This document shows positions 1 through 41,394 of a stretch of DNA of 41,394 nt, in pieces. Below the pieces are notes generated by a model, which saw only the letters and a program-made list of their open reading frames with translations, was not told where the DNA came from and searched no databases. The translations under genes and the position numbers were made by a program. This DNA comes from a virus, in the IMG/VR virus record IMGVR_UViG_3300050821_008308, positions 1 to 41,394 of that record, one strand, 5' to 3'. Position 1 is the first letter of the stretch. Each line of letters starts with the position of its first letter.

Positions 1-52
1 AACCATCAGTAATAATGGATACAAAATATCATGAAGAGATTGAGACTCTTTA
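1..52. repeat. Terminal direct repeat, left copy
   Basis: These 52 bases are identical to 41343-41394. The reading frame that starts at 41339 continues without interruption into the one ending at 284, so the ends join. The most likely explanation is assembler overlap of a circular or terminally redundant genome. A true short terminal repeat cannot be excluded from sequence alone. Confidence 0.95.
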
Positions 53-284
53 CACCGATTTAGTACTTCTAAGAATGTATCATGAAATGGTCGATTATTA
101 TAACAAGGCCTCTCATGGATTTCAGATTGAGGATCTTGAGCGAATCCCTCATTCACGAATTAATGATGAGTACAAAAAACAAGGCGGCAAACATCAGCCC
201 CTTACAATTGGAAGTTTAAAGCGTGCCCTTATTAAAATGTACCGCGACCCAGGGACGGGTCTTTTATTAAAGGATGATAAATGA
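1..284 (+). CDS. Hypothetical early protein, 3' part (starts at 41339)
   Basis: This is the body of a 95-residue protein whose real start is the ATG at 41339. An AAGGGG Shine-Dalgarno precedes that ATG, and the start overlaps the stop of the 29-codon peptide (ATGA). Read alone the frame could start at ATG 15, but that ATG lacks a good RBS. The protein is charged and helical with no recognised domain. Its stop overlaps the next ATG (281) by ATGA, so it belongs to a tightly coupled run of small genes. Function unknown. Confidence 0.75.
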   Translation, partial: PSVIMDTKYHEEIETLYTDLVLLRMYHEMVDYYNKASHGFQIEDLERIPHSRINDEYKKQGGKHQPLTIGSLKRALIKMYRDPGTGLLLKDDK

Positions 285-433
285 AATCAAAACGCGAGAA
301 CCGTATCGCCAGAAAAAAGCGGTTTTACCAAGACCTTAAGGACGAACTGGCAAAGAGGCCTGACGATAAAATACTGAAAAAACAAATTAAGCGGTTTGAG
401 AGTGACCCGGAAGTAAAGGAGACCCATGAGTAA
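281..433 (+). CDS. Small basic hypothetical protein (50 aa)
   Basis: ATG at 281 overlaps the upstream stop (ATGA), and the TAA at 431-433 lies inside the start of the next gene (426). The product is very rich in Lys and Arg at the N-terminus (MKSKRENRIARKKRF) and looks helical throughout. It could bind nucleic acid, but no family is recognised. The tight overlaps on both sides are the main evidence that it is real. Confidence 0.6.
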   Translation: MKSKRENRIARKKRFYQDLKDELAKRPDDKILKKQIKRFESDPEVKETHE

Positions 434-692
434 GAAGCAAGAAGAGATCTTAGCCGAAGCGATAGATATAATTAACGAGAAGCCGTTTTTGAAATGGAAC
501 TATAAAATGCAATATAGAAATAAACTTCATCGGCTCGAGGGCTCAGTTAAAGCCAGAACAATGAAAGATGCCATAACTTTAATTGTCGATGGTACTGATG
601 AACATATATTGGATCTTTTTAGTCTCAAAATAAATGAAGACGGCCTATGGTCGGACTTCCAAAAGACACTTGACCGCTTTGGCTGTGATTGA
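426..692 (+). CDS. Hypothetical early protein (88 aa)
   Basis: ATG 426 is preceded by AAAGGAG at good spacing and overlaps the end of the previous gene. The product is a soluble, mostly helical, charged protein with no transmembrane segment and no motif I recognise. It sits in the small-gene run between the TAGT-ParB pair (across the junction) and the PDDEXK nuclease, a place where phages usually keep host-takeover or accessory early genes. Confidence 0.65.
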   Translation: MSKKQEEILAEAIDIINEKPFLKWNYKMQYRNKLHRLEGSVKARTMKDAITLIVDGTDEHILDLFSLKINEDGLWSDFQKTLDRFGCD

Positions 693-704
693 TAGGTAGA
701 AATA

Positions 705-845
705 ATGAAAAAAACCAAGAAAGCATTTAAGAAATTTGAGCCCAAAAAGCCTGAAGTAAAACTGTCGAAACTTGAGGCCGAAGTGTCCAAGTTTAATTCT
801 GATTTTGTTAAATACTGCAAAACCAAAAAGGGCGGTGATAAGTGA
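705..845 (+). CDS. Small lysine-rich hypothetical protein (46 aa)
   Basis: ATG 705 opens a 46-codon frame ending with TGA at 843-845, which overlaps the GTG start of the next gene (GTGA). The product begins MKKTKKAFKKFEPKKP and is strongly basic at the N-terminus, with a short helical C-terminal half. No family recognised. The RBS is weak (TAGGTAG), so the overlap pattern is the main support. Confidence 0.55.
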   Translation: MKKTKKAFKKFEPKKPEVKLSKLEAEVSKFNSDFVKYCKTKKGGDK

Positions 846-1057
846 AAGCAAAAATGATTGAATTTCCAGACCAATTAAAGGCCAGAAAGATTCCCGCCAC
901 CTACGTTCAGGCATGGGTCGATGACCGGCTGTGGATTCCCGTATCCCTTGACCTAATTCGACGTAAGATCAAAATTAAGGAGTTTTTGGAGCTTTGTGTT
1001 AAGCTATACATCATGAAGTACCTACCAGAAACGGCCAGAAAGCTGGACCTTAAATAG
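842..1057 (+). CDS. Hypothetical protein (71 aa), GTG start
   Basis: GTG at 842 overlaps the preceding stop. The frame ends at TAG 1055-1057. The product is hydrophobic and basic toward its C-terminus (IRRKIKIKEFLELCVKLYIM), probably a soluble helical protein. The reading frame continues past the TAG, in phase, into the PDDEXK nuclease, with only three sense codons before the proposed ATC start. Read-through of this amber codon is thus an alternative way to make the nuclease as a fusion. No function is recognised. Confidence 0.65.
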   Translation: MKAKMIEFPDQLKARKIPATYVQAWVDDRLWIPVSLDLIRRKIKIKEFLELCVKLYIMKYLPETARKLDLK

Positions 1058-1557: not shown

Positions 1558-2277
1558 ATGTACCCTATTTTCATTCCCTCAAGGGGCCGCTACGAAAACA
1601 ATATAACGGCCAATATGCTTTTGAACGTCTGTCTGCCGTTTTATTTGGTTGTTGAGGCTAAGGAATATCAAGCATACGTGGATAAATTTGGTAAAAAGAG
1701 GGTTCTGAATCTAGGCGGTAGTGACTATGGAGGGGTGGAATTCGCCCGTAACTTTATCAAGAAATACGCTAAGGAGAAATTAAAGGCCAAAAGGCATTGG
1801 CAATTGGACGACGATATTGGCGGCCTAATGGAGGTACAGAATAGGGTTACATTAAGCACAGATGTAATAAGGATTCTCACCAAAGCAGAAACGTTCGTAG
1901 ACCAATTTAAGAACATCGCAATCGCCGGACTATCGAGTAACGTATTTGGTCGTCTTTCAGAGCAACCTGTCAAATTCAATAAGTTCGCCTATACCTGCAT
2001 GTTAATCAAATCTGACCTTCCTTATGAATGGATTAAAGGAGTGGAGGATGATTTGGATTTTAACCTTCAATGTCTGACCGCGGGATGGTGCACAGTTCAA
2101 TTTTCGATGTTCCTTTTCAAATGGACAACAACTGGGACTCTTGCCGGTGGCTATACCGATCTGTATGCGGAGGGCCGACGGCTTAAACGACAGCAAAATA
2201 CCCTAAGAAAGTGGCCTCAATATTTAACCAAACTGGCACCTAAAAGCAGTGGCGGTTACAGGATAGTTACGAATTAG
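1558..2277 (+). CDS. TAGT-type (TET-associated) glycosyltransferase 1
   Basis: This 239-residue protein has a GT-A layout. It begins MYPIFIPSRGR, has the acidic metal/nucleotide-sugar motif WQLDDDI at residues 81-87, VEDDLDF at 162-168, AGWCT at 175-179 and GGYTDLY at 198-204. The same motif series occurs in the larger paralogue at 40232. Proteins of this type are known from phages that glycosylate modified DNA bases (the TAGT family of TET/JBP gene neighbourhoods). ATG 1558 was chosen over TTG 1534 because AAAGGA lies just upstream and the domain begins there. It sits next to a PDDEXK nuclease and directly before the terminases. The substrate (DNA base or protein) is inferred. Confidence 0.75.
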   Translation: MYPIFIPSRGRYENNITANMLLNVCLPFYLVVEAKEYQAYVDKFGKKRVLNLGGSDYGGVEFARNFIKKYAKEKLKAKRHWQLDDDIGGLMEVQNRVTLSTDVIRILTKAETFVDQFKNIAIAGLSSNVFGRLSEQPVKFNKFAYTCMLIKSDLPYEWIKGVEDDLDFNLQCLTAGWCTVQFSMFLFKWTTTGTLAGGYTDLYAEGRRLKRQQNTLRKWPQYLTKLAPKSSGGYRIVTN

Positions 2278-2315: not shown

Positions 2316-2771
2316 ATGAACAAATCCCCAGGCCGGCCATTTTCAAAAGGTGTATCTGGTAACCCAGGCGGTAGGCCTAAAATGGACCCAGAGCTTAAGG
2401 AGCTCACCCGACTGACCGCTGAAGAGTTTATTGGTCTCTGTAACCGATTCCTTAAAATGACCATAACTGAGCTTCTTGAGGTCACAACGGTAGGTAGGGA
2501 TCCAGTTTCAGGCAAAGAACTACCAAACCTCAAATCAAACATGCTTGAAATGTTGGTCGCCTCAATTATTCGAAAGGCCCTAGTTGAAGGGGATGAGAAA
2601 AGGCTTAATTTTCTTTTGGATCGAATGGTAGGCAAGATCGTTCAACCTTTAGAACACATGGGTAGTATTAACTTGGAAGAGCGAGAGGTCATAGAGGTCT
2701 CTTTCTCGTGGGGCAATGAAACAAATCAAGGTCAAATTCAGAACACCGACCCGGCCACAGGAAAAACTTAG
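2316..2771 (+). CDS. terS: Terminase small subunit-like protein
   Basis: The 151-residue product starts with a glycine/lysine-rich segment (GRPFSKGVSGNPGGRPK) of the DUF5681 kind often found at the N-terminus of phage small terminases. A helical middle and an acidic C-terminus follow. It lies immediately upstream of the large terminase and overlaps it by 56 nt in another frame. The expected role is recognition of concatemeric phage DNA and loading of the large subunit. The assignment rests on the N-terminal motif plus position. Confidence 0.75.
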   Translation: MNKSPGRPFSKGVSGNPGGRPKMDPELKELTRLTAEEFIGLCNRFLKMTITELLEVTTVGRDPVSGKELPNLKSNMLEMLVASIIRKALVEGDEKRLNFLLDRMVGKIVQPLEHMGSINLEEREVIEVSFSWGNETNQGQIQNTDPATGKT

Positions 2772-4056
2772 ACAATCCACAACTCGATTTAACTTTGGGG
2801 TATGGGGTCGACAGTCTGGGAAAACCACACACGGTACGGAAAAGATGCTTTGGAAGCCTCAAATGGGCCCAATCTACGGCATTTATTGGTATGTCCTTCA
2901 GACCTATGGGGCAGCAGAAGTAGCTTTTCGTCGTTATTTGGATTTTTATCTTCAGTGTCGGGACCTATTTGAAGACCGTCCCCATTTTTCTGACCTACGA
3001 TTCAGACTTAAAAACTCAGATCGATATATTTTCTTTAAATCAGGCCAAAACTACCAGGATTTGCGTATCGAGACCCTTAACGGATGCATTATCGACGAAT
3101 ATCGACAGCAGCACCCAATTCTGTGGCCTCAAATTATCCGTCCAATGTTGGGTAGAACCAAGGGCTGGGCTGATATTTTAACCACCCCGAACGGATACGA
3201 TCACTCTTATGATCTTTGGCAGTCCGTTGAAAATGATCCTGAATGGACTAGGGTTCAGGCACCATCTACAGAGGCGTGGTGGTGGACTCCGGAAGAGATC
3301 GCATCGGCCAAACGATCAATGACTGAGGCTGAGTTTGCACAAGAGATCGAGGCCGAATTTAGAGACCTCACTAAGGGCAAGGTCTACGTCTGTCACTCTA
3401 AGAAAAACCAGCTGGATTATACCCCATTTATTACCTCAGATCCTGAAAGACTGGTCAGTGATAAATACCCCATCTATTTGGGTCTCGATTTCAACCTAAG
3501 CCCCATGAGTTGGCATCTGGGTCAGTGTGATCGGGAAAAGTGGTATTGGTTTGATGAGATTCACCTTGAACGCTCACATACTCAAGAGGCTACAAGGGTT
3601 CTGATCGACAGGCTGAACGCCATTCGCGATCGAGGGTTAATGAAATGGGAACCAAACCTTGTGATCTGCGGGGACGCTACGGGATCTGCGGGTCAAAGGG
3701 CGGCGGCCGCACAATCTGATTATGATATTTTATTGGCAGGTCTGAGACAGGCCGGGTTCACCTACGACAACCGAACCCCTGCCGCCAATCCACCGGTTAA
3801 GGACAGAGTCCAAACCATGAACGCGCGCCTTAAATCAGCATCAGGAGACATCACATTTTTCTACAATCCTGTTACTTGTCCGGCACTTAAGAAGGACTTT
3901 GATCGCGTTGTTTGGAAAGCTGAAGGGGTTCTGGATGATGGGGTTATGAAGGACTTGACGCATGCTTCGGATTCGGTAGGCTATCCAGTAACTAGAATCA
4001 CGCCGCTTAAGTCCATACTCAAAGAAGTGGGTAAGCCAATCGTGATCATCCGCTGA
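2716..4056 (+). CDS. terL: Terminase large subunit
   Basis: This 446-residue packaging motor has an ATPase with Walker A GRQSGKTT at residues 31-38 and Walker B CIIDEY near 124-129. A C-terminal RNase H-like nuclease follows, with acidic residues in LGLDFNLSP (D258), ICGDATG (D320) and LTHASDSVGYP (D419). Length and motif order are normal for a phage TerL. It cuts concatemers and pumps DNA into the prohead through the portal. The start overlaps terS; ATG 2716 is kept because the downstream frame is continuous and the Walker A lies at the usual distance. Confidence 0.95.
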   Translation: MKQIKVKFRTPTRPQEKLRQSTTRFNFGVWGRQSGKTTHGTEKMLWKPQMGPIYGIYWYVLQTYGAAEVAFRRYLDFYLQCRDLFEDRPHFSDLRFRLKNSDRYIFFKSGQNYQDLRIETLNGCIIDEYRQQHPILWPQIIRPMLGRTKGWADILTTPNGYDHSYDLWQSVENDPEWTRVQAPSTEAWWWTPEEIASAKRSMTEAEFAQEIEAEFRDLTKGKVYVCHSKKNQLDYTPFITSDPERLVSDKYPIYLGLDFNLSPMSWHLGQCDREKWYWFDEIHLERSHTQEATRVLIDRLNAIRDRGLMKWEPNLVICGDATGSAGQRAAAAQSDYDILLAGLRQAGFTYDNRTPAANPPVKDRVQTMNARLKSASGDITFFYNPVTCPALKKDFDRVVWKAEGVLDDGVMKDLTHASDSVGYPVTRITPLKSILKEVGKPIVIIR

Positions 4057-4460: not shown

Positions 4461-6035
4461 ATGAAATTACTTTTATCCCTATTATTATCGGCAACGATTG
4501 CCAGAGCCGCTTATTATCCACCACCGACAACCCAAGCTGTCTCATCAGTCAACGGACTTACTGGCGCTATAGTTCTCAGTCTCACGAATATCCAAGGCCT
4601 AAACAATGTCTACGTAGACGCTTCAAACTACACCACGATTGCGGCGGCGATAACCTACGCTGAGTCTTTGAGTGCAGCCAATAGCAGTCCTGGAGTTGGT
4701 ATTATAGTTCCAGCAGGTCAGTTCACTGAAAACGTGACCATTCATAAAAACGTTTCGCTCTACGGAGCTGGGATTTCCAATACCTACATCACATCGGTCA
4801 CGATCAGGCCAACTTCAAACAGTGTAGCACCTCAGACAATTACCATCAGTGACCTGTCGATCAACAACGCCGCAAATACTGGCTTCCTAACTGTCGATAA
4901 CCAAACGACTTCTAACAGTGGTATTTATAATCTGTCTATGCTTTCGACGAGCGGTTATACTGCCTTGGGCGGCCTGACACTTAATAATGTTGGTGTTGGC
5001 ACAATCATAGCCAATAACATAACCAATTTGAATCTGTTCAACGTACAATGTAGTGCCCCTACCGTGACACTTCTAAACGTCAACATCGTTGAGATCACTG
5101 GCGGCTTTATCAACTCAACTGTCGCGATCAACGGAAACGATGCGGGAACTGGGGCAGCGGGAACCTCAACCACAGTCTATATAGATACCGGCGTAATGAT
5201 CGGAGCTATTGCTGTCACGAAAGTAGGCGGAACAAACAACCCTAGGTTTGTAGCGACCAATTCAGAACTCGCGGCAATTACTATCGGAGCCAACACAGAC
5301 GTAGAAGTTACCGGCGGAACAAATGGAGGCAAGAGCGGAAGCGCTGCTACGGTATGGAACTCGACGTCGCCCTATACACCTGCCACCGCAGGCAATTGGC
5401 CGACAGTTCCGGCCAGCATTGATGCCGCTCTCGATAATTTAGCCCTCACAAGAGTCAAGTGGGATGCTAACCACGCAGTGGCATACACTCTGGGTTCTGC
5501 TTCAAGTGTCGGTCTGGCAATAACAGAGGCTTCAAGCGCCACCGGGGATGCGATTCAAGTATTTGATAGCGGCCCGAGTAAAAGATGGTTCGTTCAAGCG
5601 AACGGATCAATGACAACTCTGGGAGACACAAGACTTCAAGGAAATACAAATCTTGGTCAGGTCGTAAGCATGAACCCAGGAGACACCTACCAAATTACAG
5701 TAACAGATAACGGAAGCCCTCACGCTGCTGGCGCGTTTGGTGTAAAACCTCAGAACGATGCCACTATGGGTTTTGGTATTCGCGGCAACTCGGCCACACA
5801 GTCTGCTAATCTCCAGCAATGGGAAAAGAGTGATGGGACGGTTTTGGGAGCAGTGGGACCAAATGGAGGATTTCAAGTTGCTACTATTGCTGCCCGGCCA
5901 ACATGTGCATCTGGTATTCGTGGAATGATGTGGGTTGTGCGCGCGGGAGCGACTCAAGACAAATTAGAAATTTGCGTTTTAGAATCCGATGGAACCACTT
6001 ATGATTGGGCTTCAGTAGGATTGACGCTTTTATAG
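4461..6035 (+). CDS. Signal-peptide-bearing beta-helix fibre-like protein
   Basis: The 524-residue product starts with MKLLLSLLLSATIARA, a typical Sec signal. Then SSVNGLTGAIVL, a common phage fibre attachment motif, leads into a pectin-lyase-like right-handed beta-helix region (roughly residues 45-310) with repeated short beta and Asn/Ile turns. The rest resembles trimeric fibre stalk sequence, ending in a Cys-containing RPTCASGIRGMMWVV tip. It looks like a tail fibre or exported adhesin. The combination of a fibre fold with a secretion signal is the odd part. It is coupled to the upstream exported protein. Confidence 0.75.
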   Translation: MKLLLSLLLSATIARAAYYPPPTTQAVSSVNGLTGAIVLSLTNIQGLNNVYVDASNYTTIAAAITYAESLSAANSSPGVGIIVPAGQFTENVTIHKNVSLYGAGISNTYITSVTIRPTSNSVAPQTITISDLSINNAANTGFLTVDNQTTSNSGIYNLSMLSTSGYTALGGLTLNNVGVGTIIANNITNLNLFNVQCSAPTVTLLNVNIVEITGGFINSTVAINGNDAGTGAAGTSTTVYIDTGVMIGAIAVTKVGGTNNPRFVATNSELAAITIGANTDVEVTGGTNGGKSGSAATVWNSTSPYTPATAGNWPTVPASIDAALDNLALTRVKWDANHAVAYTLGSASSVGLAITEASSATGDAIQVFDSGPSKRWFVQANGSMTTLGDTRLQGNTNLGQVVSMNPGDTYQITVTDNGSPHAAGAFGVKPQNDATMGFGIRGNSATQSANLQQWEKSDGTVLGAVGPNGGFQVATIAARPTCASGIRGMMWVVRAGATQDKLEICVLESDGTTYDWASVGLTLL

Positions 6036-6046
6036 GAGGAATTTTT

Positions 6047-6229
6047 ATGGTTAAAATCACAGCAGCAGGTCCATTGAAATTAGACATGCCACTTCAGTTT
6101 GATGCAGATACAATTTTGAAATGTTTGACTGCCGGTAGAACTGCAATTGGAGCTTCGGCAACACCCGAAGAGACTGCAGTAATGAATGCTGCTATTGACG
6201 GACTGAATGCAGCTCCGAAAATAGATTAA
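6047..6229 (+). CDS. Hypothetical small protein (60 aa)
   Basis: A very strong TAGGAGG at 6033-6039, overlapping the stop of the fibre gene, precedes ATG 6047, so this start is preferred to the upstream one at 6005. The product (MVKITAAGPLKLDMPLQF...) has a short beta start and a helical C-terminus with no recognised domain. Its strong RBS and position directly after a fibre gene suggest a highly made virion-associated or fibre-assembly protein. Confidence 0.65.
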   Translation: MVKITAAGPLKLDMPLQFDADTILKCLTAGRTAIGASATPEETAVMNAAIDGLNAAPKID

Positions 6230-6251
6230 GGCTTTTTAGAAAAGGAACATC

Positions 6252-6998
6252 TTGATCCACGTCGTCGGAGATAGAGGACAACTCGGAAAATCAATCCTTG
6301 CCACCGGAAAGGCTATTCCTGCCGGTGGTATAAAGAGCGGTGACATTGTGATAAATTGCGCCGCAGCGACTAACCACAATATTTGCCAGCATAACGCAGA
6401 TAGAGCTTGGCATTCAAATATTGACTTAGTTCGCCAGCTTGTAGACACTTGCAAACGGTCAGACGCCTTTCTTATCCACATATCCACAGACTACGTTTTC
6501 AATAAGGAATGGGCCGGTAACCACAGCGAAGATAAACAACCGCGCCCAATTCCTAAAAACGTATACGCGATGACCAAGTGGATAGCCGAAGAGTACCTAA
6601 GAATATGCAACTTCGACAATTGGGTTTGTATCCGAACGTCCTGGCTCTTTTCACCCTATAGAACCTCTGAGTGGCTTAGCTTTCCGACGGTGTGGGATCA
6701 ATACGGCTCTCCGGTGTGGACTCCAAACTTTGCGGATGCCCTTATCAACTTCTGCGAGAAGATACATGTCGTAAACAAAAAGGACTTCTACCACTTCACC
6801 ACCAACACGATCACCTCACGTCTTGAACTCGCAGCTCACTACAAAGAAAAGCCAGTGCTCACGGTTCGATGTCCGGCGGACAGACCTCATTGTTCAGCCC
6901 TATTGAATACAAAAATTGAATGGGAACCGAAGCCTTTCACTCCAATGGAAGTGATTGATGCTTATAGGAAGGTACATCCTTGGCGGGGGATCGTGTGA
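6252..6998 (+). CDS. RmlD-like sugar-nucleotide reductase (extended SDR)
   Basis: The 248-residue protein has the NAD(P)-binding motif VVGDRGQLG (G6, G9, G12), ISTDYVF at residues 77-83 with the catalytic Thr region, and the YxxxK pair YAMTK (Y105, K109). This is the arrangement of dTDP-4-dehydrorhamnose reductase and related epimerases. It is a little shorter than typical RmlD (about 290 aa). Start is TTG 6252 with AAGGA just upstream. It lies inside the virion gene block, not in the accessory region. It may finish a deoxysugar used on fibres, host surface or DNA. No other rhamnose-pathway genes are present, so it would depend on host dTDP-sugar. Confidence 0.85.
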   Translation: MIHVVGDRGQLGKSILATGKAIPAGGIKSGDIVINCAAATNHNICQHNADRAWHSNIDLVRQLVDTCKRSDAFLIHISTDYVFNKEWAGNHSEDKQPRPIPKNVYAMTKWIAEEYLRICNFDNWVCIRTSWLFSPYRTSEWLSFPTVWDQYGSPVWTPNFADALINFCEKIHVVNKKDFYHFTTNTITSRLELAAHYKEKPVLTVRCPADRPHCSALLNTKIEWEPKPFTPMEVIDAYRKVHPWRGIV

Positions 6999-26829: not shown

Positions 26830-27930
26830 TCATCTTTTTGATTCTTGAACTGGTCCAGAAGCCGACTGATACACCCGAAGATTCGTCGCCGCCACCGTCA
26901 ACTTGAAATCTTGATTAATGTTAACGAGATATTCTATTGCGCTTTCTCTGATTTTATTTTGATCCTCTAGTTTGTAACTGTCACAAATATAACCCCATCC
27001 ATCGGCATTTAATTGCTTAAAGGCATCCGTTTCACAAAGTTCGATGAGCCGTCTAAGTTCGTATTTGAAAGCGTGCGGTTTGTAGTTGATGACCCCTGGA
27101 ATTCCTTGCCACTCTTCCCAGTCTGGCGCGAGAACAATTCCACCAGCCATCAGACCTTCGAGTGCCGCGATATTGCTCTTACACCGATTGAAAATATTGT
27201 CGAACAACGGGCAAATAGTAAGGTCAGGCCTAACTTGATTCAAAATTTTAAAGTAACTGGTTACATCTGTGCCTGAAACACTCACACAATTTTCAGTTTC
27301 CTCGATAATTTTCCATGGTTTTTTCCCTACAAACCAAAACTCCCAGCCAGGATATTCGTTTGCCACCTGAATAATATCGCCTGTTACGTGCTCCAAATCT
27401 CGCTCGTGATGTACTCCACCCCTCCATAGAACCCTTCTTGGCGTGGGGCGCGTGTCTACATTTCTGTAGCCTGTCCATCGCGTTTCAAGAAATGCATTTT
27501 TAATAATTACGGTATCATTTTCAGGTCTGAATCTATCCAGTACTTTTTTAAGTTCAACTGTAGTCGTGGTTACAACCTTGGCCGCTACCAACATTGAAAT
27601 CATGTCCCCTTGAACCTCTGGGTCCATGTACTGCTCATAGGATTTATTATCGTGAGGTATTTTGAAAAGGTGATCGTCAATGTCCAACCAAATTGGAGTT
27701 TCATAATCAAGGCAAAGTCTGGCGATCTGTTTGTGAAGTTTCGTCCACGGTCTATGCATGAAAACAATATCCGCATCAGCAACGTGTGTCCATTTTACAT
27801 CCTCTTGATCCATTCTCATAAAAAGCAAATTGAGTCCTGAATTTTTTCTTAAGTGGGTGAAAGGGCCGAAACTTCTCCACCATGAGCCTGACTGATCAAG
27901 ACTGTCTGAAATTACAAGTATTTTTATCAT
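26830..27930 (-). CDS. GT-B glycosyltransferase
   Basis: Read from ATG 27930 the protein (about 366 aa) begins MIKILVISDSLDQSGSWWR, a Rossmann-like start, with WLDIDDHLF in the N-terminal domain and a C-terminal nucleotide-sugar domain with RVLWRGGVHHERDL, WEFWFVGKKPW, PDLTICPLFDN and LEGLMAGGIVLAPDWEEW, the E-x7-G pattern of GT4-like enzymes. The frame also opens at 28059; 27930 avoids overlapping the upstream gene. It is last in the minus unit. Substrate unknown; it could act with the RmlD-like reductase, methyltransferase and oxygenase on a surface or virion glycan. Confidence 0.75.
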   Translation of the reverse strand: MIKILVISDSLDQSGSWWRSFGPFTHLRKNSGLNLLFMRMDQEDVKWTHVADADIVFMHRPWTKLHKQIARLCLDYETPIWLDIDDHLFKIPHDNKSYEQYMDPEVQGDMISMLVAAKVVTTTTVELKKVLDRFRPENDTVIIKNAFLETRWTGYRNVDTRPTPRRVLWRGGVHHERDLEHVTGDIIQVANEYPGWEFWFVGKKPWKIIEETENCVSVSGTDVTSYFKILNQVRPDLTICPLFDNIFNRCKSNIAALEGLMAGGIVLAPDWEEWQGIPGVINYKPHAFKYELRRLIELCETDAFKQLNADGWGYICDSYKLEDQNKIRESAIEYLVNINQDFKLTVAATNLRVYQSASGPVQESKR

Positions 27931-27961
27931 TCCCGTAGGCTTGTAAAATCCTGACAGACTG

Positions 27962-28213
27962 TCAAGGCAAAATAATTCTTTCGTGCCTCTGATTAAGGTG
28001 GTCAAGACAGATGCATTCAACTGGAAATCGGTCTGCGTAGTGACCAACAGAAGTCTCATGGAACGAGCCGCAGAAGGCGTAGCACTTATCAGATGGAGAA
28101 ACGTTTATTTTTCTGACCAGACTTGAGCAGGTGACGACGCCAGTTCCAAAAACTGTAAACATTACTATTGCCAGAAGGTAGAATTTCAAATCATCGTTTG
28201 GATCAAAGCTCAT
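27962..28213 (-). CDS. Single-span membrane protein (83 aa)
   Basis: ATG 28213 follows AGAGG. The product has one hydrophobic helix near residues 11-32 (FYLLAIVMFTVFGTGVV) and a Cys/His-containing C-terminus (CYAFCGSFHE, VECICLDH) that could bind metal. It lies upstream of the GT-B gene in the minus unit. No family recognised. Confidence 0.55.
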   Translation of the reverse strand: MSFDPNDDLKFYLLAIVMFTVFGTGVVTCSSLVRKINVSPSDKCYAFCGSFHETSVGHYADRFPVECICLDHLNQRHERIILP

Positions 28214-29904: not shown

Positions 29905-30548
29905 AGTAAATCTACCAATGCCCAATGAGTTTTAATTACCAAAAGAGTCGTGTCCTGCGGTAAGCATCCCATTTCTGGAGTGTAGTAAGACAGAATCTTA
30001 TCCTTCAGTTTCGCTTTGCTAATTAACCTACGGAATGGCCACGGTGTCAAATATGCAATCAAAGCCCATTGTAAATAGCCGTCAGTCTTGCCGGTGAACC
30101 TGATTCGTTTGGCTCCGTCGTCCCAGTAGGGCAAATAGAAAAATAAAACTTGAATAAGCTGTGAGAGACAGCGAAGCCACGTTATTTTTCTTAATTCAGC
30201 CAAGTATCCGGGAGTAACATAGTTTCCGTTGCCCGTTTTGTAACCTCTTCCAGTCACTTGATCGTAAATCTGAACTTGTTGCTTATAATTGCAGGTCTCT
30301 CGAAAGAACATGTATAGCGGCTTCTCCTGATCCTCGGTCGTATCGTTGGCGCCCCAAATACTTTTCGGATGCCTGATCACTCCGTTAGGGGTAAGAAACT
30401 GATCAAGTTTTAATTGTGGGTGATACTGTTTATTAACAAACCACCAAGATAAACCAAAAGCACTAGAGTCAAACGCACTATCCCCGTATCTACCATCGGA
30501 CGTTGGACCGTCTTGATCCCTAACCAAAGTTCCATCTTCAAAGTGCAT
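29901..30548 (-). CDS. Unrecognised 215-aa protein coupled to the methyltransferase
   Basis: ATG 30548 shares its A with the methyltransferase stop (TAATG), so the two are translationally coupled. The product has an N-terminal DGTLVRDQDGPTSDGRYGDS segment, several aromatic-rich helices (FGLSWWFVN, VLFFYLPYWDD, LQWALIAYLTPWPFRR) and a basic C-terminal part. It is not an obvious membrane protein. It may modify or bind the same substrate as the methyltransferase. I do not recognise a family. Confidence 0.65.
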   Translation of the reverse strand: MHFEDGTLVRDQDGPTSDGRYGDSAFDSSAFGLSWWFVNKQYHPQLKLDQFLTPNGVIRHPKSIWGANDTTEDQEKPLYMFFRETCNYKQQVQIYDQVTGRGYKTGNGNYVTPGYLAELRKITWLRCLSQLIQVLFFYLPYWDDGAKRIRFTGKTDGYLQWALIAYLTPWPFRRLISKAKLKDKILSYYTPEMGCLPQDTTLLVIKTHWALVDLL

Positions 30549-31204
30549 TATAATTTCTCCAATACCAGAATAACTTCCTGGCCGTTCAAAAACCACTCTA
30601 CTATCTTAAAAGTCTTAACCAGTTCACTAAACTTCTCAAACATTTCATTTAATACTTGTTCATCCCAACAGTGGAAGTGGATATCAGCGTCTTTAGGCAT
30701 TTCGCGTGCTCTTTTCAGAGCTACCTCTATATCGTTTTTATCAACGCGAACAAAATACTCGATGAGGTGAAATATTCTATTGTCTGCCACTGTCCCAGGA
30801 TACAAGTACTCCCCAAGCAAGTGCTCATAGCTTGTAACGCGTCTACCTCTATCGAAAGTAAATCTCTTATCTGGCACCGCGATCATAAGATGTCCACCTG
30901 GTTTTACAACGCGAAGCCAGTTTTCAATAGCACTTAGAGGATTTTCCATGTGCTCAAGAACGTGGGAGCTGCAAAGAAAATCAAATGACTCGGTATCAAC
31001 TCCCTCCAGTGTTTCAGCCGAAGTGATGATATCTGTTTCAACAATTGGTTTGTGTTGACACTCCGGGAACTGTGCGAAGAGTTCAGCCCTAGTTTTCTTA
31101 TCGGCGTAGGTGACTTTCCCAGGTACGGGCCAGGGATTATGGAAAGCGCCAACCTCAATGCCAAGACCATTGCCGTACTTTTTTCCTAACTCAATCCTTG
31201 TCAT
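30548..31204 (-). CDS. Class I SAM-dependent methyltransferase
   Basis: The 218-residue protein has the Rossmann start GLGIEVGAFHNPWP, an acidic strand end (VTYADK), DFLCSSHVLEHMENPLSAI (post-II) and the motif LRVVKPGGHLMIAVPD (motif III region). It matches Methyltransf_11-type enzymes often found in glycan loci. ATG 31204 follows AGGATTAA. It is coupled to a 215-aa unknown and lies near the GT-B gene. Target is unknown: sugar, protein or small molecule are all possible; no DNA-MTase target domain is seen. Confidence 0.8.
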   Translation of the reverse strand: MTRIELGKKYGNGLGIEVGAFHNPWPVPGKVTYADKKTRAELFAQFPECQHKPIVETDIITSAETLEGVDTESFDFLCSSHVLEHMENPLSAIENWLRVVKPGGHLMIAVPDKRFTFDRGRRVTSYEHLLGEYLYPGTVADNRIFHLIEYFVRVDKNDIEVALKRAREMPKDADIHFHCWDEQVLNEMFEKFSELVKTFKIVEWFLNGQEVILVLEKL

Positions 31205-34293: not shown

Positions 34294-34368
34294 TCAAACT
34301 CTGGACGGGTGGTGTACGAGACACTTGAAAACAAGTACACCTGGCTTAATTGCCCCCGCCCAAATCAT
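34294..34368 (-). CDS. 24-codon ORF after the oxygenase
   Basis: ATG 34368 overlaps the oxygenase stop (ATGA), and the frame runs to TGA 34296-34294. The peptide MIWAGAIKPGVLVFKCLVHH then PSRV has Cys and two His. An inverted repeat lies within it: GGTGTAC (34311-34317) and GTACACC (34335-34341). It may be a minicistron, or the sequence may be only a regulatory hairpin. Confidence 0.35.
   Translation of the reverse strand: MIWAGAIKPGVLVFKCLVHHPSRV
34311..34341. repeat. Inverted repeat downstream of the oxygenase gene
   Basis: GGTGTAC and GTACACC form a 7-bp arm with a 17-nt spacer; inside, ACTTG TTTT CAAGT on the minus strand makes an alternative hairpin. No U-tract follows on the minus strand. 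It could modulate transcription between the oxygenase and the next genes. Confidence 0.5.
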
Positions 34369-35102
34369 AAATTACTTCCAAGTCTTCCAAGATTGCGCTT
34401 CCTTCTAAGGATTTCGGTAGTTTCGTCAGTCACCTCACCAGGCTTTTTAAGAAACTGAGTCGATAGGTGTTCCTTCTGAAGATCCTCTAGGGTTGGCGCT
34501 GTGTAGTAGTAAAGCGCCAAGCTCATTCGATTAGTCTCTTTACAGTTCCAAGGAGTACCGAGACCGTGAGGCGCATCTGGCGTTTCAAATATCACCATAC
34601 GATTCATTATCGGAGCAATTGAAAAGACTGCCTTAGACATATCCTTCTCCCAAAGCTCCAAAGCGCCGCCCTTGTCGTGAGTGTAGTCCTTGTTGAGATA
34701 CAGAAGGACGTTGAGTCTACGAATGAGTCCCAGCTTTTCGTGCTTAGTGAAATCGCGGTGTATTGAAAGTTTACCGCCGTAAGTGTGAATATGAATTCCC
34801 CCGCCACGAAGTGTGTGATCTCCGATTAAACCATTAATACCAGTCAGTTGTTCAAGCATTCCAATAAATTTACCGCCAAGACTCTCTAGAAAAAAGTATT
34901 GTATTGTTGGGGCGAAAAGCTCCCATTTATCAGTGGCCAGTTTCCCCTCAAAGGCATTTTCGTAACTGTAAAATTTAGAAAAATCCTTAATATCATTAAG
35001 GTATATTTGGAATAATTCTGCTCGTTCCTTCATAATAGAATTATCAATGATCCACCATCGAAAGGGGGCTGAGCCGTATTTAGCCTTGGTAATATCAATC
35101 AT
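34365..35102 (-). CDS. 2OG-Fe(II) oxygenase (prolyl-4-hydroxylase-like)
   Basis: From ATG 35102 (strong AGAGGAGGG upstream) the protein is 245 residues. It carries the facial triad HRD (H115, D117) and PHG (H179) with the 2OG-binding Arg in NRMSLALYYYT (R192), a double-stranded beta-helix layout of the 2OG-FeII_Oxy_3 kind. A longer frame to 35189 exists, but that stretch encodes a separate Cys-rich gene in another frame. It could hydroxylate a sugar, protein residue or DNA base. TET/JBP membership is not supported by the motif spacing. It lies in the recombination/microprotein unit. Confidence 0.85.
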   Translation of the reverse strand: MIDITKAKYGSAPFRWWIIDNSIMKERAELFQIYLNDIKDFSKFYSYENAFEGKLATDKWELFAPTIQYFFLESLGGKFIGMLEQLTGINGLIGDHTLRGGGIHIHTYGGKLSIHRDFTKHEKLGLIRRLNVLLYLNKDYTHDKGGALELWEKDMSKAVFSIAPIMNRMVIFETPDAPHGLGTPWNCKETNRMSLALYYYTAPTLEDLQKEHLSTQFLKKPGEVTDETTEILRRKRNLGRLGSNL

Positions 35103-35269
35103 TATGCCCTCCTCTGCTTCCAGTGAACATACTTTGGCGCCCTTATTTTTTTCTGCCAAGCCGTCTGAGCCCTCTGTCTTAGTCTCCATGTTTTGCAGGT
35201 CGTGGTATCGCTAAAGCCAGGACATTTCAGAGGATCGGAGCAGATACATTTTAAACCGAGGGTTTTCAA
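35102..35269 (-). CDS. Cys-rich microprotein (55 aa), TTG start
   Basis: TTG 35269 overlaps the upstream TGA (TTGA) with GGGAG upstream. The TAA shares its last A with the oxygenase ATG (TAATG). The product (MKTLGLKCICSDPLKCPGFS...) has C-x-C, then two more Cys, and a basic C-terminus. The tight overlaps support a real gene. Likely zinc-binding. Confidence 0.65.
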   Translation of the reverse strand: MKTLGLKCICSDPLKCPGFSDTTTCKTWRLRQRAQTAWQKKIRAPKYVHWKQRRA

Positions 35270-39597: not shown

Positions 39598-40263
39598 ATG
39601 TTAATCCAAGATTTGAAGCCTAATCCCAGAAATCCCAGAAAAATCACAGAGGAAAAGCTCGAGTTCCTTCGGAAAACCCTGAAAAAATTTGGTGACTTAG
39701 GCTGTATTGTTTTTAATAAGAAAAATGAATCCCTGGTAGGAGGTACACAGCGCTCCAAGGTCTTCGATTCTCAGATCAAAGTGGTAATAGAGACCAAATA
39801 CGATAAGAAAACCAAGGTCGGGACGGTGGCTGAGGGGTATATCGTTTCAAACGGTGAGCGCCACAAATATCGTGAGGTCGAGTGGGATGAGGATACCCAT
39901 AAGGCCGCCACTATCGCAGCCAATAAAATGGCCGGTGAATTCGACCCATTGGGTTTATCGGAACTGATGAGAGAGTTAAACGAGACCGGTTTCGATCTTG
40001 ACCTGACGATGTTCAACGAAATCGAAAGGGCCAATTTCCTGGCCGATATTTTGGATCCAAATAAAGAGTGGCACGACGTAATGCCGGAGTTTAAACAAGA
40101 GGATCAATCGGCAGAACAACAGATCACGATCAATTTCAAATCCTATAAAGACGTAGTTAGATTCGGGAAACTTATAAAACAAAAGCTAACCGAAAATACT
40201 AGGAGTATTTGGTTTCCGAAAGCGCCTAAAGATGTCGAAAAAAAGAAATACAAAAACAAATAA
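39598..40263 (+). CDS. ParB-like N-terminal domain protein
   Basis: The 221-residue product begins MLIQDLKPNPRNPRKITEEK, with LVGGTQRSKVF at residues 46-56, the ParB/Srx-type nucleotide-binding layout. It has no DNA methyltransferase domain after it, unlike many phage ParB fusions. No Shine-Dalgarno precedes the ATG, so it may be leaderless. Its end overlaps the start of TAGT 2. Such ParB genes are known near base-modification genes in phages. Role unproven. Confidence 0.75.
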   Translation: MLIQDLKPNPRNPRKITEEKLEFLRKTLKKFGDLGCIVFNKKNESLVGGTQRSKVFDSQIKVVIETKYDKKTKVGTVAEGYIVSNGERHKYREVEWDEDTHKAATIAANKMAGEFDPLGLSELMRELNETGFDLDLTMFNEIERANFLADILDPNKEWHDVMPEFKQEDQSAEQQITINFKSYKDVVRFGKLIKQKLTENTRSIWFPKAPKDVEKKKYKNK

Positions 40264-41173
40264 GTTCGACCCCCAGCATCCCCTATATATAGTGAGCAAG
40301 GGCCGTTCTGAGTACATGATGACCAGCAAAGCCCTAACGAGAATGGGCGTCGATCATTTTATTGTCGTCGAGCCTCAAGAGGTAAAACTTTATAAGGACT
40401 CGATTAAGAAATTAAAACTACGAACGACGGTAGTTGAACTAGATATGGGTTTTAAAAATAAATACGAATTGTGTGACGAATTTGGATTAACGAAATCAAC
40501 GGGGTCGGGGCCGGCAAGAAATTATGCTTGGGAGCATTCAATTAAATCCGGCTCGACCCATCACTGGGTTATGGACGACAACATTCGATGGTTTAGGCGA
40601 ATCAATAACAATCAAAAAGTTATACTCGAAAGCGGTTCAGGGTTCAGAGCGATGGAGGATTTCGCTAAGAAATTTATAAACGTCGCAATGGCAGGGCCAC
40701 AGTATTCGTTTTTCTCTCCCAGAAAAGAAAAATACAAACCGATCATTTTAAACACCAGGGTATTCAGTTGTAATTTTATTCGCAATTCTGTTCCGCTTCG
40801 TTGGCGTGGTCGATACAACGAGGACATAATCCTCTCGCTCGATATGCTGAAGGCCGGTTGGTGTACACTATTATATAGAGCGTTTACACAGGACAAAATG
40901 ATTACCCAGGCCATGAAGGGCGGGAATACGACGGAACTTTACGAGGGAAAAACCCTTTCCAAAGGCGAAAAATATTCCAAGACTGGAACGAACCAGAAAT
41001 CTATTATGCTCCAGAGACTACACCCAGAATACGCTGAAGTCGTTTGGAAATACGATAGAGTTCACCATAAAGCTAACCTACGATCCTTCCAGAAAACTAA
41101 CCGACTTATAGTCGACCCTACGTGGAAACCGCCCCAGGATAAAGAATACGGGTTAGAGCTTAAAGCTACGTAG
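40232..41173 (+). CDS. TAGT-type glycosyltransferase 2
   Basis: The 313-residue protein has HPLYIVSKGRSEYMM, GPARNYAW, HHWVMDDNIRWF (D115, D116), RGRYNEDIILSLDMLKAGWCT and MKGGNTTELYEGK, the same motif series as TAGT 1 in a longer form. These are the hallmarks of GT-A glycosyltransferases linked to modified DNA in phages. The ATG lies in the end of the ParB gene. It ends 79 nt before the 29-codon peptide. Substrate inferred. Confidence 0.8.
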   Translation: MSKKRNTKTNKFDPQHPLYIVSKGRSEYMMTSKALTRMGVDHFIVVEPQEVKLYKDSIKKLKLRTTVVELDMGFKNKYELCDEFGLTKSTGSGPARNYAWEHSIKSGSTHHWVMDDNIRWFRRINNNQKVILESGSGFRAMEDFAKKFINVAMAGPQYSFFSPRKEKYKPIILNTRVFSCNFIRNSVPLRWRGRYNEDIILSLDMLKAGWCTLLYRAFTQDKMITQAMKGGNTTELYEGKTLSKGEKYSKTGTNQKSIMLQRLHPEYAEVVWKYDRVHHKANLRSFQKTNRLIVDPTWKPPQDKEYGLELKAT

Positions 41174-41252
41174 GTTTTAAGTTGATACAATAATTATTAT
41201 TTTAATGATTTTTCTAAAGATGTGTAATATACTGTTCTTAATGGAGGTATTG
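41174..41252 (+). promoter_or_regulatory. Intergenic with possible promoter before the small-gene run
   Basis: This 79-nt AT-rich stretch has TTGATA (41182-41187) and TAATAT (41225-41230), but their spacing (37 nt) does not fit one promoter. GGAGG at 41243-41247 is the RBS for ATG 41253. A weak promoter with TAATAT as -10 is possible; the -35 is not clear. Confidence 0.35.
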
Positions 41253-41342
41253 ATGGATTCCTTAACAGCATATCTAGAAGTAGTTGGAGTTTTGGTAATA
41301 ATGGCGGTGATGTATTTTTTCTTAACAAGGGGTTCAAAATGA
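41253..41342 (+). CDS. 29-residue single-span membrane peptide
   Basis: ATG 41253 has GGAGG five bases upstream. The product, MDSLTAYLEVVGVLVIMAVM then YFFLTRGSK, is one hydrophobic helix with a positive C-terminus. Its TGA overlaps the ATG at 41339 (ATGA). It is probably translated. It might be a small membrane effector. Confidence 0.65.
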   Translation: MDSLTAYLEVVGVLVIMAVMYFFLTRGSK

Positions 41343-41394
41343 AACCATCAGTAATAATGGATACAAAATATCATGAAGAGATTGAGACTCTTTA
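41339..41394 (+). CDS. Start of the gene that continues at position 1
   Basis: The ATG at 41339 begins a frame (MKPSVIMDTK...) that runs through the junction to 284, giving 95 residues. AAGGGG precedes it. It is the true 5' end of the first gene of the window. Confidence 0.75.
   Translation, partial: MKPSVIMDTKYHEEIETL
41343..41394. repeat. Terminal direct repeat, right copy
   Basis: This is identical to 1-52. It shows the window is closed on itself or terminally redundant. Confidence 0.95.

What the first reader, a model, noticed from the sequence alone, without database searches (positions are those of the whole stretch)
39598..41173. ParB-TAGT pair plus a distant second TAGT: candidate DNA hypermodification
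Seen: ParB and TAGT 2 overlap, and TAGT 1 lies across the junction at 1558-2277 with the same motif series. Known: TAGT-family transferases decorate modified bases in phages with TET/JBP enzymes. Here no TET, thymidylate hydroxymethylase or aGPT is seen, so the acceptor base or another acceptor is unknown. This may be a variant system.
Basis: partly seen in the sequence, partly recalled or inferred. Interest (0 to 1): 0.7.

Follow-up and report, generated by a model that had tools for sequence, protein, structure and literature searches.

The report
Phage sugar-tagging cassette with ParB partner
This virus of bacteria carries two sugar-attaching enzymes, one of them locked to a small previously unnamed partner domain, in a compact gene cassette found across many unrelated phages; it probably puts sugars on the phage's own DNA, but without any of the known enzymes that first prepare a base to receive a sugar.

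Summary
A ParB-like gene (39598-40263) overlaps a TAGT glycosyltransferase (40232-41173), and a second TAGT lies at 1558-2277. A 52-bp end repeat shows the map is circular, so both sit in one rightward gene run ending in the terminase genes. Scanning viral contigs for the MPEF motif alone, every informative locus has a TAGT: directly next door, fused to it, or one gene away. The reverse scan agrees. ParB, MPEF and TAGT also occur as one polypeptide. The TAGT1 type recurs in the same cassette. TET/JBP is absent from all 49 cassette-bearing records searched, and no thymidylate-synthase/dCMP-hydroxymethylase homologue occurs in the small phages. No other gene family is shared by 12 such phages, apart from the terminase in six. 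Inserted genes are mostly sugar-tailoring enzymes. The ParB half is homologous to that of phage ParB-DNA-methyltransferase fusions. Best reading: a TET-independent DNA-glycosylation module, with ParB-MPEF presenting DNA to TAGT. The acceptor is unknown; protein glycosylation is not excluded. New variant of a known kind.

The parts
39598..40263 (+). ParB-like protein with C-terminal MPEF domain (221 aa)
   Evidence: phrog_498 1.4e-23, phrog_620 6e-22; session MPEF profile E=5e-21
40066..40218 (+). MPEF domain (EWHDVMPEF...SIWFP), the domain paired with TAGT in related phages
   Evidence: alignments A2/A3; pairing counts; no Pfam, NCBIfam or PDB-fold match
40232..41173 (+). TAGT2 glycosyltransferase, MPEF-linked type (DDN and NED motifs)
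   Evidence: PF20691 3.4e-34; AlphaFold2 model pLDDT 91, pTM 0.90, GT-A folds as best PDB matches
41205..41342 (+). small ORF (45 aa, hydrophobic segment) between TAGT2 and the junction
   Evidence: function unknown
1..52 (.). 52-bp direct terminal repeat, left copy: the map is circular
41343..41394 (.). 52-bp direct terminal repeat, right copy
15..1057 (+). run of small ORFs (15-284, 281-433, 426-692, 705-845, 842-1057) between TAGT2 and TAGT1 on the circular map
   Evidence: only weak PHROG matches
1558..2277 (+). TAGT1 glycosyltransferase, second TAGT type (LDDD, VEDD motifs)
   Evidence: PF20691 3.2e-32; relatives sit in the MPEF/TAGT2 cassette
2316..2771 (+). probable terminase small subunit
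   Evidence: position before TerL and sequence; DUF5681 is among the Pfam families found in the pooled scan (assignment to this ORF is inference)
2716..4056 (+). terminase large subunit, end of the gene run
   Evidence: phrog_2 2.4e-24
34365..35189 (-). 2OG-Fe(II) oxygenase (P4H/FlmC-like); possible but not conserved partner
   Evidence: PF13640 1.8e-15; present in only 2 of 22 cassette records searched

Best explanation
A TET-independent DNA glycosylation module. Shown: the ParB-like protein, its C-terminal MPEF domain and the TAGT glycosyltransferase form an evolutionarily locked cassette; the TAGT1 type is a recurrent second member; mostly sugar-tailoring genes are inserted into it; no known acceptor-base enzyme accompanies it. 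Inferred: MPEF is the docking or acceptor-presenting subunit of TAGT; the ParB half, where present, brings the complex to phage DNA. TAGT2 then transfers a sugar from a nucleotide-sugar to the phage DNA around replication or packaging, and TAGT1 adds a second sugar or a second target, much as T6 adds a second glucose. The result would mask phage DNA from host nucleases. Unknown: the sugar and the acceptor atom.
For: (1) Pairing: an MPEF-only motif scan of viral contigs gave 101 adjacent TAGTs, 3 fusions, 11 TAGTs one gene away and 5 without a TAGT in the first tally. With profiles, 181 of 185 MPEF hits have a TAGT fused or within 4 kb downstream; of the other four, three run off the contig end and one is a second MPEF ORF next to Aeh1's fused MPEF-TAGT. 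In bacterial/archaeal genomes 7 of 7 true MPEF loci have a TAGT. In isolated phages all 17 MPEF hits are TAGT-clade records. (2) Fusions: ParB-MPEF-TAGT in L071 and L199; MPEF-TAGT in L040-L043, Aeh1, POP12, PTm1, phage 65, two Vibrio phages and both Kuja copies. (3) DNA link: the ParB half is homologous to that of phage ParB-DNA-methyltransferase fusions. The cassette lies before the terminase here and in many relatives, or among replication genes in others: PolA in L179/L181, primase/helicase/Dam/dUTPase in Vibrio phage 1.124, clamp loader/DNA polymerase in henriette. (4) Known TAGTs glycosylate DNA: T2/T6 enzyme (PMC13216743, PMC13390438). (5) Sugar tailoring by inserted genes. (6) Two-TAGT cassettes.
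Against: No enzyme that creates a hydroxylated base is conserved with it: TET in 0 of 49 cassette records, C5-methyltransferase in 3, thymidylate-synthase/dCMP-hydroxymethylase family in none of the small phages. All characterised TAGT chemistry known to me needs such a base. I found no wet evidence for modified DNA in any of these phages; PMC8056088 lists the Aeh1 base as 'unknown'. The best PDB folds are generic GT-A enzymes at TM about 0.4, with a collagen hydroxylysine galactosyltransferase first, so the fold does not favour DNA over protein.
Confidence: 0.58

Rival explanations
1. Protein glycosylation: TAGT2/TAGT1 glycosylate a virion or host protein (or a ParB/MPEF-bound protein), with MPEF as the adaptor that brings the acceptor protein.
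For: No acceptor-base enzyme is conserved. The cassette often sits at the head/packaging gene block. The best structural match is a hydroxylysine galactosyltransferase. The genome carries a P4H-like oxygenase, an RmlD-like reductase and another glycosyltransferase.
Against: ParB homology points to DNA-modifying partners. In other phages the cassette is in replication blocks. No virion or host-protein family is shared by the cassette-bearing phages apart from TerL in 6 of 12. MPEF itself has no invariant Ser/Thr/Asn/Tyr acceptor. The oxygenase is not conserved.
Confidence: 0.22
2. In this phage the 2OG-Fe(II) oxygenase at 34365-35189 makes the hydroxyl (on a base or a protein side chain) that the TAGTs then glycosylate.
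For: A 2OG-Fe(II) oxygenase is present (PF13640 1.8e-15) with an HxD-like HRD motif. Oxidation followed by glycosylation is the logic of TET-TAGT and JBP systems (established knowledge).
Against: It is not TET/JBP. It is nearest to P4H/FlmC/YhhC types, lies on the opposite strand far from the cassette, is absent from 20 of 22 cassette records, and no close relative was found in viral contigs.
Confidence: 0.08
3. The acceptor is supplied by the host: the cassette glycosylates host-made modified nucleotides, or RNA/tRNA, rather than a canonical base.
For: The cassette is the only gene family common to 12 diverse phages, so the acceptor must be generic or host-derived.
Against: The cassette occurs in phage contigs and in bacterial and archaeal assemblies of very different phyla, which would need a universally available modified base. 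No RNA-linked gene is conserved beside it.
Confidence: 0.07
4. The ParB-TAGT pairing is chance or neutral hitchhiking.
For: ParB-like genes are common just upstream of phage terminases.
Against: Reciprocal scans, domain fusions and overlapping start/stops in unrelated phages; TAGT is 40-60% identical while the ParB part is mostly 24-30%.
Confidence: 0.02

Closest known systems
T2/T6 beta-glucosyl-HMC-alpha-glucosyltransferase (ggt; TAGT, PF20691)
   Same: Same Pfam family and DxD-type GT-A enzyme; in T6 it lies between uvsX and the dCMP hydroxymethylase gene; adds a second sugar to phage DNA (PMC13216743, PMC13390438).
   Different: T6 makes hmC by gp42 and a first glucose by alpha-GT; none of these is seen here. 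T6 ggt shows no MPEF in its sequence and falls outside the well-supported MPEF-linked group in the tree, on a very long branch.
TET/JBP-TAGT clusters, e.g. Nonlabens phage P12024L
   Same: TAGT of the same Pfam family in a phage; P12024L has TET (PF12851, 2.8e-29), TAGT and a DNA methyltransferase in a row.
   Different: No TET in the window or in the other 48 cassette records searched; P12024L's TAGT lacks MPEF and ParB.
Aeh1-type TAGT (Aeromonas phages Aeh1, 65, phiAS5, Ah1)
   Same: Same MPEF-linked clade (39-45% identical to TAGT2) with MPEF fused at the N-terminus. PMC8056088, citing Iyer 2013, lists the Aeh1 enzyme as presumably modifying DNA, base unknown.
   Different: MPEF is fused rather than carried by a ParB-like protein; single TAGT; large T4-like genome; the MPEF domain and its pairing are not mentioned in the passages of that paper I read.
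Phage ParB-DNA methyltransferase fusions (phrog_498) and ParB followed by an ATPase-GNAT gene (Pseudoalteromonas phage SL25)
   Same: Homologous ParB half, often just upstream of terminase, coupled to a DNA-modifying or presumed DNA-modifying enzyme.
   Different: The catalytic partner is a methyltransferase or a Mom-like GNAT, without MPEF and without a glycosyltransferase.

Membership tests
TAGT family (PF20691) | Profile match above the curated cut-off | tested here: met
   119 and 112.6 bits against a cut-off of 27.5
TAGT family (PF20691) | GT-A fold with DxD-type metal site | tested here: met
   AF2 model pLDDT 91/pTM 0.90 with GT-A enzymes as best PDB folds; D115 D116 N117 invariant in 66 sequences
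TAGT family (PF20691) | Transfers sugar to a modified DNA base | not testable with these tools
   needs nucleoside LC-MS or an in vitro assay
TET/JBP-TAGT hypermodification pathway | TET/JBP dioxygenase in the genome | tested here: not met
   PF12851 absent from the window and from all 49 cassette records; positive control P12024L rings
TET/JBP-TAGT hypermodification pathway | C5-cytosine methyltransferase supplying 5mC | tested here: not met
   PF00145 absent from the window; 3 of 24 records
T-even hmC glucosylation pathway | dCMP hydroxymethylase (thymidylate-synthase superfamily) | tested here: not met
   PF00303 absent from the window and from all small cassette phages
T-even hmC glucosylation pathway | alpha-GT or beta-GT adding the first sugar | tested here: inconclusive
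   no such family in the pooled Pfam scan of 57 window proteins, but only 25 of 27 matched families were shown
ParB partition/CTPase proteins | ParB_N domain above cut-off | tested here: inconclusive
   PHROG ParB families at 1e-22, Pfam ParB_N only 14.3 bits in the window but 43.3 bits in relative L030
ParB partition/CTPase proteins | ParA partner and centromere-like sites | not tested
   no ParA family appeared in the window scans; sites were not searched
Phage ParB-DNA methyltransferase fusions | DNA methyltransferase domain fused to ParB | tested here: not met
   the protein ends in MPEF; PF01555, PF05869 and PF00145 are absent from the window

The most novel reading that the evidence does not exclude
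The MPEF-TAGT complex glycosylates a canonical, unmodified base (or another native group) in DNA directly, with MPEF creating the acceptor site and an exchangeable ParB half giving DNA targeting: a one-step DNA glycosylation system that needs neither hydroxymethylated precursors nor TET.
Probability: 0.25. Interest if true: 0.88.

Novelty: new variant of a known kind. Interest (0 to 1): 0.62.

Why it matters
A 2026 paper notes that 288 of 753 GT-bearing phage genomes carry a TAGT without alpha- or beta-GT and that their function is undefined (PMC13216743). The MPEF domain gives a sequence handle that splits off one coherent group of these orphans, shows they travel with a dedicated partner rather than with TET, and names isolated phages in which the acceptor could be determined. 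If the acceptor is an unprepared base, it would be a new route to sugar-modified DNA and a possible compact tool for labelling DNA.

Tried and rejected
TET, C5-methyltransferase, thymidylate synthase/dCMP hydroxymethylase, N4/N6-methyltransferase and Dam as a universal acceptor-making partner: rejected, none is conserved. 2OG-Fe(II) oxygenase as obligate partner: rejected, 2 of 22 records; no relatives in viral contigs. MPEF as glycosylated acceptor peptide: disfavoured, no invariant hydroxyl or amide residue, with the caveat that the W, M, P, E columns are fixed by the motif used to collect many sequences. PDB sequence search with TAGT2: only antibody-type noise. PDB fold search with the MPEF model (pLDDT 82, pTM 0.55): nothing. 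The EWxGMPE motif alone also hits unrelated bacterial genes, many in Oceanospirillaceae; these were set aside because they lack the KSxWFP end and a TAGT. Close relatives of the window's own ParB-like protein: only one weak locus. Rfam and tRNA scans of the window: nothing. Iyer 2013 and Pyle 2024 are not held, so prior mention of ParB-linked TAGTs there cannot be excluded.

Full report
What is there. The window is a complete circular phage record: a 52-bp exact repeat joins its ends. The ParB-like gene 39598-40263 and TAGT2 40232-41173 overlap by 32 nt, and TAGT1 lies at 1534/1558-2277 just before the terminase genes. On the circle they form one rightward run: ParB-MPEF, TAGT2, small ORFs, TAGT1, TerS, TerL. 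Both glycosyltransferases are strong members of Pfam TAGT and of phrog_842. The ParB-like identity is solid in PHROGs and weak in Pfam.

The missed feature. Viral-contig relatives of TAGT2 (45 loci, 31-60% identical) are nearly always preceded by a ParB-like ORF, but in several loci the ParB domain is missing and only a short ORF or an N-terminal extension of the TAGT remains. What stays is a ~55-residue domain with the pattern EWxGMPE[FY] ... K[ST]xW[FH]P (alignment A2). In the window it is the C-terminal part of the ParB-like protein (40066-40218; session profile E=5e-21). No Pfam, NCBIfam or standalone PHROG model covers it, although phrog_723 may span it in part. I call it MPEF here.

How tight is the pairing. 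In the first tally 101 had a TAGT directly downstream, 3 had it in the same ORF, 11 had it after exactly one inserted gene, and 5 had none found. With profiles over all loci, 181 of 185 MPEF hits have a TAGT fused or within 4 kb downstream; of the four others, three run off the contig end and the fourth is a second small MPEF ORF beside Aeh1's fused MPEF-TAGT. After removing identical copies: 83 ParB-sized and 62 short MPEF genes with a TAGT, 11 MPEF-TAGT and 2 ParB-MPEF-TAGT single polypeptides, 4 without. Starts and stops mostly overlap by 3-16 nt. In bacterial and archaeal assemblies the 7 loci with a full MPEF all have a TAGT. In isolated phages the 17 MPEF hits all fall in TAGT-clade records. 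The MPEF-linked TAGTs form a supported group (99/96) that leaves out T6 ggt, the TET-linked P12024L enzyme and TAGT1, but takes in one TAGT1 relative (L177) at its base; the long outside branches make their own positions unsure.

TAGT1 belongs. Its viral relatives (10 loci) mostly sit beside a TAGT2-type gene, and several also beside an MPEF gene, in the orders ParB/MPEF-TAGT1-TAGT2 or TAGT1-MPEF-TAGT2. Double-TAGT polypeptides exist in L091 and L104, and Vibrio phage Kuja has two MPEF-TAGT fusions in tandem. Two consecutive sugar transfers are therefore a natural reading, but an inference.

Inserted genes. Where one gene separates MPEF from TAGT it is usually a sugar-tailoring enzyme: a Gly_transf_sug glycosyltransferase (L066), a sulfotransferase (L070), SAM methyltransferases (L033, L098), an FkbM methyltransferase (L039), sequences that read as NDP-sugar epimerases (L140, L170), and one radical-SAM enzyme (L115). 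L179 has sulfotransferase and UDP-galactopyranose mutase. L078 fuses a glycosyltransferase-like domain (similar to the L107 insert) to ParB-MPEF.

What is absent. TET/JBP is in none of 49 cassette-bearing records, while the positive control rings (the second batch had no positive of its own). Thymidylate-synthase-type enzymes occur only in the six large phages, where they may be ordinary thymidylate synthases. C5-methyltransferase is in 3, N4/N6-methyltransferases and Dam in a few, the 2OG oxygenase in the window and one other. Many records are fragments, so these absences are not proof for each phage; the window itself is complete. All-against-all comparison of 12 large records finds only two families in four or more: the cassette (12 of 12, by the way they were chosen) and TerL (6 of 12). 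At BLAST sensitivity there is no third conserved gene that could make an acceptor.

Why DNA is favoured. The ParB half is homologous to that of phage ParB-DNA-methyltransferase fusions (phrog_498; 46-59% identity in isolates annotated as DNA methylases), and a related ParB in phage SL25 precedes an ORF that reads as an ATPase-GNAT fusion resembling Mom-type modifiers (my reading of the sequence). The cassette lies before the terminase or within replication blocks. The biochemically described T2/T6 TAGT acts on DNA (PMC13216743, PMC13390438). Against this stands the missing acceptor enzyme, and fold matches that are generic GT-A enzymes. I put DNA glycosylation at 0.58 and protein glycosylation at 0.22.

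Novelty. TAGT without TET is already on record: Aeh1's enzyme was listed as presumably modifying an unknown base (PMC8056088, citing Iyer 2013) and orphan TAGTs have been counted (PMC13216743). The obligate MPEF partner, the ParB-MPEF-TAGT architecture and the recurrent two-TAGT form were not found in the papers searched, but Iyer 2013 and Pyle 2024 could not be read. Hence 'new variant of a known kind'.

Noticed in passing
   Followed up: yes
window 6252-6998 (+): A short RmlD-like (dTDP-4-dehydrorhamnose reductase family) gene inside the structural-gene block (PF04321 2.2e-31); it could supply a deoxysugar.
   Followed up: partly
window 26830-28059 (-) and 30548-31204 (-): A further glycosyltransferase (phrog_7162, 7e-27) and a small SAM methyltransferase (Methyltransf_11, 1.8e-10): more sugar-type genes in the same 41-kb phage.
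   Followed up: partly
L071:1293-2837, L199:2270-4291: ParB, MPEF and TAGT in a single polypeptide: ready-made single-chain enzymes for biochemistry.
   Followed up: partly
L078:3279-4943: A glycosyltransferase-like domain (similar to the L107 insert) fused in front of ParB-MPEF, followed by TAGT.
   Followed up: partly
L179:2137-7621: MPEF, sulfotransferase, UDP-galactopyranose mutase, TAGT2, DNA polymerase A and TAGT1 in one block: suggests a sulfated or galactofuranose-type decoration tied to replication.
   Followed up: no
L214, L115: A cassette with a radical-SAM gene between ParB-MPEF and TAGT, found in a Methanomicrobiales assembly and in a viral contig.
   Followed up: no
L056 (Vibrio phage henriette 12B8) about 5690-6813: MPEF and TAGT lie in different frames and are unannotated: a frame break or two genes.
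   Followed up: no
L259:3959-5580 (Pseudoalteromonas phage SL25): ParB-like ORF without MPEF followed by an unannotated ATPase-GNAT ORF before the terminase: possible Mom-like DNA modification pair.
   Followed up: no
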